A stretch of DNA of 64,000 bases, taken from Fictibacillus arsenicus. Its GTDB lineage: Bacteria; Bacillota; Bacilli; Bacillales; Fictibacillaceae. The position numbers were made by a program, and so were the translations under genes. Where the stretch lies: assembly GCF_001642935.1 (NCBI RefSeq), contig NZ_CP016761.1:248001-312000 (forward strand), written 5' to 3'. Of this stretch, positions 2,167 to 59,925 are shown piece by piece. A model generated the notes under the pieces. It searched no databases, was not told the DNA's origin, and saw only the letters and a program-made list of their open reading frames with translations. Positions within the stretch are counted from its first letter, which is position 1, and the number at the start of each line of letters is the position of its first letter.

Positions 2167-2173
2167 GGATAAG

Positions 2174-2208
2174 ACCGATTCAAAACATTTCGTTTTGAGT
2201 CGGTTTTT
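2174..2208 (+). terminator. Terminator after the YciI-family gene
   Basis: Stem ACCGATTCAAAAC/GTTTTGAGTCGGT with a five-base loop followed by TTTTT. Confidence 0.9.
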
Positions 2209-2226
2209 CATTTGTCGAGCTTTGTC

Positions 2227-2345
2227 AAAAGACCTATATTTTATAAAAAAGACTTAATGTACATCAATTTAGACTTAATTTTTTCAAATTAGACCTTATT
2301 GTACCCAAAAAAGACCTAATGCCTCCCTATTTAAACTTAATCACA
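2227..2345. repeat. Array A: six AGACyTwAT words at 20-21 bp pitch
   Basis: Copies of AGACCTATA, AGACTTAAT, AGACTTAAT, AGACCTTAT, AGACCTAAT and AAACTTAAT begin at 2230, 2250, 2271, 2291, 2312 and 2333, that is 20, 21, 20, 21 and 21 bp apart. The 11-12 bases between words are not conserved. The array fills the spacer between the terminator of the YciI-family gene and the gatC promoter region. Function unknown; see the matching arrays at 11241, 35600, 56352 and 59820. Confidence 0.8.
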
Positions 2346-11198: not shown

Positions 11199-11242
11199 AA
11201 GCCCTGCAAGGTGATGTGTGTGTCATCCTGCAGGGCTTTTTA
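11199..11242 (+). terminator. Terminator of swrC
   Basis: Long stem AAGCCCTGCAAGGTGA / TCATCCTGCAGGGCTT followed by TTTT. Confidence 0.92.
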
Positions 11243-11335
11243 TAGGAAAAAAGGCTTTATAAGCTATAATTTTAATTTATAGGCTGTAATTTATGTTTCT
11301 AAGCCGTAACATTGCCTTTATATGCTTTTCGACAT
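11241..11335. repeat. Array B: AAGCTrTAAT words at exact 20 bp pitch
   Basis: AAGCTATAAT, AGGCTGTAAT and AAGCCGTAAC begin at 11261, 11281 and 11301, exactly 20 bp apart, with weaker flanking units at 11241 and 11321. It lies in the convergent spacer between the swrC terminator and the terminator of the peptide transporter operon. No coding capacity. Confidence 0.7.
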
Positions 11336-11349
11336 TGCGACAAAACCAA

Positions 11350-11380
11350 CAAAAAGAAAAGACTGGTGATGAGCCAGTCC
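11350..11380 (-). terminator. Terminator of the oligopeptide transporter operon
   Basis: Minus-strand stem GGACTGG/CCAGTC around a seven-base loop, then TTTTCTTTTTG. Confidence 0.85.
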
Positions 11381-11387
11381 TCCGATT

Positions 11388-35566: not shown

Positions 35567-35599
35567 CGTTAAAGTAAGGGGTATGCTAAGTGCGAAACT

Positions 35600-35735
35600 T
35601 GTCGTGAAATGTCGACTCGTGGTTATTTTCAAAATAACGTGGGATTATAGTGCTCTAACATGGGAAAAAATCAATTAACGTGTGATTATACCCATCTATC
35701 GTGCGATTTTTATCATAATATACCGGCGTGGGTAT
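35600..35735. repeat. Array C: CGTGnGATTAT words at 20-21 bp pitch
   Basis: CGTGGTTATT, CGTGGGATTA, CATGGGAAAA, CGTGTGATTA and CGTGCGATTT begin at 35618, 35638, 35659, 35679 and 35700: spacing 20, 21, 20, 21 bp. Weaker relatives lie at about 35603 and 35727. It is in the convergent spacer between the FAD oxidase terminator and the HTH gene. Confidence 0.8.
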
Positions 35736-49671: not shown

Positions 49672-49875
49672 GTTCATATTCATCCGGTAATCATGGTGTC
49701 TGTTATAGACTTAATAGGGAATCTGGTGAGAATCCAGAGCTGTACCCGCAACTGTATGTGCTGACGAAATAAGCAAAACCACTGTCTAAAGATGGGAAGG
49801 GCTTAGAGTAGAGTAAAGCCTGAGTCAGGAGACCTGCCATGTTTATAGTGTTGATCTTCTTCGGGAGTTGGGAAG
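49672..49875 (+). ncRNA. Cobalamin (AdoCbl) riboswitch
   Basis: Plus-strand cobalamin aptamer. Conserved blocks in order: AATAGGGAATCTGGTGAGAATCC, CTGTACCCGCAACTGT, ACCACTGTC and the B12 box GAGTCAGGAGACCTGCC (about 49821-49838). A possible expression platform follows: hairpin GCCCATC/GATGGGT (49925-49941) with a U-rich tail, overlapped by sequences that could pair upstream. B12 riboswitches turn off transport or synthesis genes at high coenzyme, but the gene 140 nt downstream is a thioesterase. This, with the terminator, fills most of the 500-bp gap. Confidence 0.93.
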
Positions 49876-55305: not shown

Positions 55306-55455
55306 ATTTAGTAAAGAGCATATTTCAAAGTTGAAAAAATGCAACTTAGGAGCTGCTTTTTGCAGGTTGGTTGAAAGCGGATTTACGGAGAGGTTTTGCT
55401 GACATATACTGGTGACACAAGCTTAACAGTCCTTAAAACGAAAGGAGGACGAGAG

Positions 55456-55893
55456 ATGAAGTTAACCATTCATGAAAGTAACGATCAAGATGAATTGGAG
55501 ATTATCGTAAAGTGCAAAGAGATGAACGAGGAAGTCATTAAAGTACTAACGTCTATAAGGTCTCTGGAAAGAAAAGTGCTGGGAACGTTAGATGGGAAAA
55601 TCCATCTGCTGCTGCCGAGCGATATATTTTATTTTGAGTCTGTTGATAAAAAGAACTTTGCTTACACGAAGCAATCCGTTTATGAAGTTTCGCTGCGGCT
55701 TTATCAGATTGAGGAGCTGTTTGGTGATGGGAATTTCTTTCGGGCAACAAAGGCGACAATCCTGAATCTCGATAAAATTAAAACGATAACGCCTCGACTT
55801 GGAGGAAGAGTAGAGGTGACGCTTGATAACGGCGAAAACATGATCGTTTCCCGTCAGTATGTCTCTGGTTTAAAAGAAAAGATCGGTTTTTAA
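55456..55893 (+). CDS. LytTR family DNA-binding regulator
   Basis: 145 residues from the ATG at 55456, after AAAGGAGGACGAGAG. Residues about 45-145 form a LytTR domain: GKIHLLLPSDIFYFESVDKKNFAYTKQSVYEVSLRLYQIEELFGDGNFFRATKATILNLDKIKTITPRLGGRVEVTLDNGENMIVSRQYVSGLKEKI. No receiver domain is attached; such proteins pair with DUF3021 membrane proteins, as here, 14 bp downstream. Confidence 0.93.
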   Translation: MKLTIHESNDQDELEIIVKCKEMNEEVIKVLTSIRSLERKVLGTLDGKIHLLLPSDIFYFESVDKKNFAYTKQSVYEVSLRLYQIEELFGDGNFFRATKATILNLDKIKTITPRLGGRVEVTLDNGENMIVSRQYVSGLKEKIGF

Positions 55894-56351: not shown

Positions 56352-56425
56352 AGATCGAATTTGTGTTTATGGGGCTTCAAAAAATTTTAAGAGCCTTCAA
56401 AATTTTTTATGATCCCCGAAAATAT
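56352..56425. repeat. Array E: TTCAAAAwTTTT units at about 20 bp pitch
   Basis: Units beginning TCGAATTT, TTCAAAAAATTTT, TTCAAAATTTTTT and CCGAAAATAT have their third-position C at 56357, 56378, 56398 and 56417: spacing 21, 20 and 19 bp. Lies right after the DUF3021 stop and before the shared terminator, in a convergent spacer. Weaker than arrays A-D because of AT bias. Confidence 0.55.
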
Positions 56426-59819: not shown

Positions 59820-59925
59820 CAGTTAATCCAAAAAAACAGCGTTGAATCCAGAAAAAAGCACCCTCAATCCAAAAATTTTGACGTTCAATCCACAAATTTC
59901 AAACCTCAATCCACAAATTCAATAA
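59820..59925. repeat. Array D: tCAATCCAnAAA words at 20-21 bp pitch
   Basis: AATCCA starts at 59825, 59845, 59866, 59887 and 59908, giving spacing 20, 21, 21 and 21 bp. Each is preceded by T/C-rich and followed by A-rich bases (AATCCAAAAA, AATCCAGAAA, AATCCAAAAA, AATCCACAAA, AATCCACAAA). Lies between a minus-strand gene's start and the next terminator. Confidence 0.82.

What the first reader, a model, noticed from the sequence alone, without database searches (positions are those of the whole stretch)
2227..2345. Array A and a five-locus pattern: short words phased at about 20.5 bp in spacers
Seen directly: six AGACyTwAT-like words start at 2230, 2250, 2271, 2291, 2312, 2333. Four other spacers in the window (11241-11335, 35600-35735, 56352-56425, 59820-59925) have different words but the same 20-21 bp pitch, which is two DNA turns. 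Distinct words with a shared pitch suggests a common mechanism: a protein contacting one DNA face, RNA wrapped around a ring protein, or a replication/repair process that creates and homogenises units locally. All sit at the 3' side of a transcription unit. I know of no named element with this architecture.
Basis: partly seen in the sequence, partly recalled or inferred. Interest (0 to 1): 0.85.

Follow-up and report, generated by a model that had tools for sequence, protein, structure and literature searches.

The report
Evenly phased word arrays between genes
This bacterium carries roughly two hundred short arrays between its genes, each repeating one of about a dozen different DNA words every 20 or 21 base pairs (two turns of the helix) and mostly pointing along the direction of DNA replication; they look like lined-up docking sites for proteins that remain to be identified.

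Summary
Real, and larger than stated. The six words start exactly as given. In 263 spacers (window plus 20 own-genome stretches, 464 kb) 21 score at least 20; shuffles and 12 other pitches give none. Estimate: about 200 arrays in the 4.06 Mb chromosome; the 70 examined include 13 word families. Steps are 20 or 21 bp, the preference differing by family. Words are better conserved than linkers (159/164 v 107/135). At orthologous spacers word, unit number and orientation change while pitch persists. Arrays tend to run with replication: 42 of 49 type-I leaders, 55 of 65 arrays, 14 of 14 AGACTCAAT arrays in G017; gene direction is a partial confounder. They favour convergent spacers; 7 of 63 lie between divergent genes. 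RNA folding is unremarkable. Best reading: DNA-level, same-face rows of protein sites, polar with respect to replication. No protein was found; LytTR does not fit, and RAYT evidence is inconclusive to negative. Seen in this genus, two of three sister genera sampled and five named or MAG Bacillales loci; not in 24 other families of the order, thinly sampled.

The parts
2212..2236 (+). cap of array A (TTGTCGAGCTTTGTCAAAAGACC; TTTGTCGAAAGAC-like in other arrays of the family)
2230..2341 (+). array A, six AGACYTWAT-like units, steps 20,21,20,21,21
2171..2207 (+). terminator-like hairpin between the upstream gene and array A
   Evidence: consensus scan
11250..11345 (-). array B (TTACAGCTTATAA-like family on the minus strand), cap TTTTGTCGCAATGTCGAAAAGC at its high-coordinate end; convergent spacer, with a terminator-like hairpin of the right-hand gene called at 11357-11383
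35598..35725 (+). array C (TTAACGTGGGATTA-like family) with cap TTGTCGTGAAATGTCGACTCGTGG, convergent spacer
56365..56421 (+). array D, apparently a shrunken array of the TTTATGAGCCTTCAAA family (six units in G002)
59820..59917 (-). array E (TTTGTGGATTGA-like family on the minus strand), five units

Best explanation
Each array is a row of about four to six binding sites for a sequence-specific DNA-binding protein, set 20 or 21 bp apart so that every site faces the same side of the helix and bound molecules can touch. Word families would be read by different proteins or by different specificities of one protein class, and the cap or leader would be the end where assembly begins. About 200 such 100-130 bp nucleoprotein tracts, in gaps that tend to avoid promoters and mostly aligned with replication, would act on chromosome structure, fork passage or segregation rather than on single genes. 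Units are gained and lost by duplication and deletion; linkers then drift while words are kept. Shown: pitch, families, word conservation, polarity, turnover. Inferred: that protein binds, that DNA rather than RNA is read, and the role.
For: Only 20/21-bp steps exceed chance; 12 other pitches give nothing at 20 or more; with 17-24 allowed, 270 of 301 steps are 20 or 21. The preferred step differs by family (chi-square p=2e-14, small cells). Words hold at 159/164 v linkers 107/135 between G000 and G002 (arrays A, C, E). Word profiles resemble protein sites (roughly 9-13 bp with a near-invariant core; variants 166 transitions, 230 transversions). RNA folding is unremarkable. Orientation follows replication for type-I leaders (42 of 49, p=4e-7), for 13 families taken together (55 of 65, permutation p=1e-5) and for AGACTCAAT arrays of G017 (14 of 14); 24 of 31 arrays between convergent, divergent or lagging-strand tandem genes also follow it.
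Against: No binding protein was found: clustering 1071 ORFs from about 21% of the genome showed no obvious family, but that test is weak, since about three of a dozen paralogues would be expected there and clusters were not annotated. A dozen specificities for one architecture is costly to explain. Orientation agrees with gene strand nearly as often as with replication between tandem genes (27 v 29 of 31), and convergent spacers alone are marginal (16 of 22, p=0.05); each family's reference strand was its majority strand, which the permutation allows for but the 24 of 31 does not. Arrays are lost and replaced between species, so array A at least is dispensable.
Confidence: 0.48

Rival explanations
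1. Arrays are selfish, non-autonomous repeats spread by a transposase that works on single-stranded DNA of the lagging-strand template (RAYT/Y1 or similar); words are the enzyme's sites and polarity records how they insert.
For: Polarity with replication. A shared type-I leader with an inverted ACGTGT/ACACGT pair, 49 copies in G000, reversed-pattern control 0. Whole arrays copied between loci: a subset of GAGCG arrays share linkers and flanks. At least one unbroken Y1_Tnp frame in 18 of 18 genus genomes; also in array-bearing G226, G227, G228, G230, G028 and G030.
Against: Many arrays of a family have unrelated linkers, so they are not recent copies. Words outlive linkers. No array or leader in the 3.0 kb around the Y1 gene of G000; a chain scoring 28.5 near the G017 gene lies inside an ORF. 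Y1 frames of 178-311 aa also occur where no array was seen (G037, G043, G053, G056, G058); array-bearing G018 shows only two strong IS200-like matches, each with a stop, and G231 none. Empty sites were not analysed systematically.
Confidence: 0.25
2. Arrays are boundary or roadblock elements against transcription read-through, bound by protein but acting on RNA polymerase at gene ends.
For: Convergent spacers 23 of 63 v 28 of 243 background (p=1e-5), divergent 7 of 63 v 57 of 243 (p=0.04) (20 of the 41 stretches were chosen for leaders). Arrays lie nearer to 3' ends (median 93 bp, n=79) than to 5' ends (144 bp, n=47).
Against: All 5 classified divergent cases and 16 of 22 convergent cases follow replication. 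A 3' bias may only mean that promoters exclude arrays. A terminator-like hairpin already precedes array A.
Confidence: 0.12
3. Arrays act as RNA: transcripts whose words are bound by a ring protein or by small RNAs.
For: Arrays are polar, and some have a conserved leader that could be a start site. One of 12 strands folds better than most shuffles (z -1.96, 6 of 200 shuffles as good).
Against: The other 11 strands lie between z -1.04 and +1.33. No Rfam match over the window's arrays. Word variants are not wobble-like.
Confidence: 0.07
4. Ordinary slippage minisatellites that decay, with no function.
For: G006 has 14 near-identical 20-bp units; D differs by about three units from its G002 counterpart.
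Against: Neutral decay would not spare words over linkers (p=1e-6), keep a pitch of 20-21 across unrelated words or give polarity.
Confidence: 0.06
5. A CRISPR-like memory array (leader, repeats, unique spacers).
For: Leader plus constant-length units with differing linkers.
Against: Linkers of about 7-12 bp are very short for memories and are inherited between related species; about 200 dispersed loci.
Confidence: 0.01

Closest known systems
REP/BIME/REPIN elements with RAYT transposases
   Same: short dispersed intergenic repeats, many copies per genome; a Y1 gene in every genome of the genus
   Different: rows of non-palindromic words at fixed pitch; no array at the Y1 gene of G000; Y1 distribution does not clearly track arrays
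Iterons and plasmid centromeres such as parC of pSK41 (20-bp direct repeats bound by ParR; recalled)
   Same: direct repeats of about 20 bp that can be read on one helix face
   Different: about 200 chromosomal loci and 13 word families; no replicon or partition gene seen by eye beside three arrays
LytTR (AgrA/ComE) direct-repeat operators, about 21-bp pitch (recalled)
   Same: short words two turns apart
   Different: mostly four to six units; one LytTR gene in G000 and none in G006, which has arrays
KOPS/SRS and Chi (polar sites; recalled)
   Same: orientation with replication
   Different: single words rather than phased arrays; type-I leaders are sparse near the terminus
CRISPR arrays
   Same: leader, conserved words, constant unit length
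   Different: linkers of about 7-12 bp, inherited; no link to viral DNA tested or shown

Membership tests
REP/RAYT | palindromic unit with a GTAG tag | tested here: not met
   profiles of 13 families are direct, non-palindromic words; definition from passages of PMC3733652
REP/RAYT | the repeats flank the transposase gene | tested here: not met
   no intergenic array and no type-I leader in 3.0 kb (G000) and 2.5 kb (G017) around the Y1 gene; GTAG palindromes or inverted repeats there were not searched
REP/RAYT | RAYT gene present where the repeats are | tested here: inconclusive
   18 of 18 genus genomes have a Y1 frame; among other array-bearing genomes G018 has only IS200-like matches with a stop and G231 none, and Y1 frames also occur where no array was seen
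LytTR operators | LytTR protein present | tested here: not met
   G006 has no LytTR match but has five arrays in 60 kb
CRISPR | spacers of about 25-40 bp (recalled length) | tested here: not met
   pitch 20/21 and words of 9-13 bp leave about 7-12 bp
CRISPR | spacers match foreign DNA | not tested
   linkers were not compared with phage DNA one by one
Iteron/centromere | adjacent replication or partition gene | tested here: inconclusive
   ORFs beside three arrays of other genomes were read by eye only; other arrays were not annotated
KOPS/Chi-like polar sites | strand bias with replication | tested here: met
   42 of 49 leaders, 55 of 65 arrays, 14 of 14 in G017
Known structured RNA | Rfam match | tested here: not met
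   the one match in the window is the cobalamin riboswitch at 49677-49855, not an array

The most novel reading that the evidence does not exclude
A genome-wide DNA addressing system: about 200 polar nucleoprotein arrays, each labelled by one of a dozen words but built on one two-turn pitch, that report or set direction along the replichores (a bacterial counterpart of oriented CTCF sites), with word families replacing one another at the same spacers over evolution.
Probability: 0.2. Interest if true: 0.95.

Novelty: categorically new. Interest (0 to 1): 0.83.

Why it matters
I found nothing named that combines many words, one pitch, replication polarity and about 200 intergenic copies. If protein-bound, the arrays are ready-made handles on how bacilli organise or orient their chromosome, and the word families offer a natural series of specificities; if mobile, they are an unusual class of dispersed repeat. 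Either way a pull-down with one array is a direct test.

Tried and rejected
RAYT as the mover: no array at the gene and an unclear distribution; kept as a rival. A paralogous DNA-binding family among 1071 ORFs: none obvious, in a weak test. Phage or plasmid origin: one type-I element was searched and gave no match; the viral-contig pattern was too loose and is not used. RNA structure: unremarkable. Wobble pairing: 166 transitions to 230 transversions. My earlier reading that G017 had changed its word species-wide was wrong: besides 31 GACTCAAT pairs it has 44 GACYTAAT pairs (their places were not listed, so their strands by replichore are unchecked). Two sister families coexist there, and locus A may have switched family. 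The genus was named by no tool; Halobacillus is a guess from recall. Literature: six searches on such arrays and two on RAYT were seen as listings; passages of two papers were read (PMC6006769, PMC3733652). None of this describes the arrays; most subscription papers are not held.

Full report
Observation. The window lies at 248001-312000 of a one-contig 4.06 Mb genome. Array A is as described: six AGACYTWAT-like words with steps 20, 21, 20, 21, 21. I wrote a chain detector (8-bp words, steps 20/21) and ran it on 263 spacers from the window and twenty 20-kb stretches of the same genome. Eighteen stretches were picked by position; two (L018, L023) were placed to cover arrays already known. It found 25 spacers at 15 or more (0.05 expected from 20 shuffles each) and 21 at 20 or more (0 from shuffles); 12 other step pairs from 14/15 to 33/34 gave none at 20 or more. 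The 6-mer lag count shows the same peak with harmonics in spacers, not in coding sequence. With up to three arrays per spacer allowed, these stretches hold 27 arrays at 15 or more. Leaving out the window and the two placed stretches, 19 arrays in 360 kb remain, or about 200 per genome; one or two of these may be other repeats (for example a two-unit hit at 3002103).

Families. With twenty more stretches, chosen because they hold type-I leaders, 70 arrays were found; 65 fall into 13 word families and 5 were left unassigned (one misassigned array was corrected). Of the 70, 57 have four to six units. Whether the step is 20 or 21 depends on the family: GCGTGAA, TCACATAA and GTCAAATTA use 21 only, AAGGATCATA and TTTACGAGCGATT mostly 20 (p=2e-14, with small cells and some related copies). 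Profiles are roughly 9-13 bp wide with a near-invariant core, such as TTGAGCG over 110 units.

Leader and cap. Arrays of the GAGCG, GGGYGAA and GCGTGAA families, one GGATT array, and the CAGGTGG arrays of other species share a 35-bp leader, TACGGTACGTGTTNTTNNNTNTATTNCACGTTCGC. With two mismatches allowed it occurs 49 times in G000 and in 16 of 34 genomes of the family, all of this genus; the pattern read backwards gave none (words). Several other families share a cap built on TGTCGA.

Polarity. GC skew of the sampled stretches is positive up to 2.02 Mb and negative from 2.2 Mb. Type-I leaders lie on the minus strand before the switch and on the plus strand after it in 42 of 49 cases. Taking each family's majority strand, 55 of 65 arrays agree with replication against 43.3 expected by permutation (p=1e-5). 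In G017 all 6 AGACTCAAT arrays up to 1.71 Mb are plus and all 8 from 2.68 Mb are minus. Sampled skew puts the G017 terminus between 0.92 and 1.90 Mb, so the fit requires it to lie beyond 1.71. Genes confound this: of 31 arrays between tandem genes, 27 agree with gene strand and 29 with replication. Between convergent, divergent or lagging-strand tandem genes, 24 of 31 arrays follow replication (16 of 22, 5 of 5, 3 of 4); here the majority strand per family was used without correction. Type-I leaders are sparse around the terminus: 4 v 12.1 expected in 1.6-2.6 Mb (p=0.005, interval chosen after seeing the list).

Context. With both neighbours called, 23 of 63 arrays are convergent, 33 tandem and 7 divergent; sampled spacers give 28, 158 and 57 of 243. 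Arrays thus tend to avoid promoters but are not confined to 3' sides; the array of L002 lies between two divergent genes that look, by eye, like drug/metabolite transporters.

Evolution. In the gatC-upstream spacer of 17 genus genomes the AGACYTAAT array is present in G000, G002 and G014 and has four units in G013. GACTTAAT-like units stand in G003 and AGACTCAAT units in G017. A different array (CAGGTGG-like, leader at the other end) stands in G004, G005, G008, G009, G010, G012 and G016. None is detected in G006, G011 and G015, and in G007 only remnants remain beside another repeat. At the D spacer the TTTATGAGCC family of G002 is matched by a GAGCG array in G013 and by GTCTTCAAG-like words in G003; near E, G003 has TCACGGAAAA words instead of the GGATT family. 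Between G000 and G002 words of A, C and E agree at 159/164 and linkers at 107/135; G014 gives 50/54 v 49/58 for A and 57/60 v 26/34 for C. The more distant A comparisons point the same way (47/54 v 33/55 with G003, 44/54 v 31/54 with G017), but gaps and family change blur them. GACTCAAT pairs occur in 3 of 18 genus genomes and GACYTAAT pairs in 16 of 18, G017 having both.

Distribution. For GACYYAAT pairs, 17 of 199 genomes of the order match: 5 of this genus with 4-31 matches, and 12 others with one match each, no more than the backward control gives. Other words at the same pitch occur in sister genera g2 and g4; none was seen in g3 (110 kb). Of 80 loci fetched with GatA (1.48 Mb, many phyla), five hold hits of 25 or more, all Bacillales by title: Bacillus sp. 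BHET2 (two arrays), B. ectoiniformans, Bacillus sp. ISL-41, Salipaludibacillus keqinensis and a Bacillales MAG. Two further hits lie between 20 and 25, one in the ISL-41 locus and one, a three-unit GGGTTTCGGGTT-like repeat, in a Desulfobacteraceae MAG; seven other pitches gave one hit at 20.7. Twenty other families of the order, one stretch each (327 kb, four of them under 7 kb), gave none at 20 or more. Four more families gave none at 14 or 15, while control pitches gave single hits at 15 or more in G034 (two), G037 and G002. So the spread looks patchy, and one stretch per genome can miss sparse arrays.

Mechanism. The two-turn pitch, the spared words, the profile shape and the lack of RNA fold (one of 12 strands at z -1.96) favour DNA-level binding by proteins on one helix face. 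Polarity suggests either that direction along the replichore matters or that arrays enter through single-stranded DNA at the fork. Searches for a reader or mover were negative or inconclusive: LytTR, Y1 transposases, paralogous families in a fifth of the genome. Expansion is suggested by the 14 units in G006 and contraction by locus D.

Verdict. Real, genome-wide as far as sampled, strange, and with no counterpart found in six searches of an open-access library. I rate it categorically new as a kind of genomic feature, with the mechanism open.

Noticed in passing
window 49677-49855: Cobalamin riboswitch, 116.8 bits.
   Followed up: no
window 55396-55893: The one LytTR match found in the genome (window 55597-55884) lies beside a spacer that holds an array in G002 and about 0.5 kb from array D.
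   Followed up: partly
L041 (G007), L165, L170 and the G002 counterpart of spacer B: A second dispersed repeat (GTTGATTTCCGCTCCAGG ... GCGGGGCGTG) stands in the array A spacer of G007; a subset of GAGCG arrays is followed by the same motif on the other strand and shares upstream flanks, as if carried inside a larger repeat.
   Followed up: partly
L412:4208 (G006): Fourteen near-perfect 20-bp units TCGTTTWGCGATCATAAATT, an array apparently caught in expansion.
   Followed up: partly
L414:9724 and 9813 (G018): Two adjacent arrays of the same word, GGACAATAAA, in opposite orientation.
   Followed up: no
G004, G005, G008, G009 contig starts, e.g. G005:C32:298, G008:C5:266: AGACTTAAT arrays with similar linkers recur about 60-580 bp from contig starts, as if flanking a repeated operon such as rRNA (listed part).
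   Followed up: no
G000:C1:3685349-3685681 (L449): Single Y1/RAYT-like gene, about 190 aa; every genome of the genus has at least one unbroken Y1 frame, while B. subtilis did not ring in the tool's control set.
   Followed up: partly
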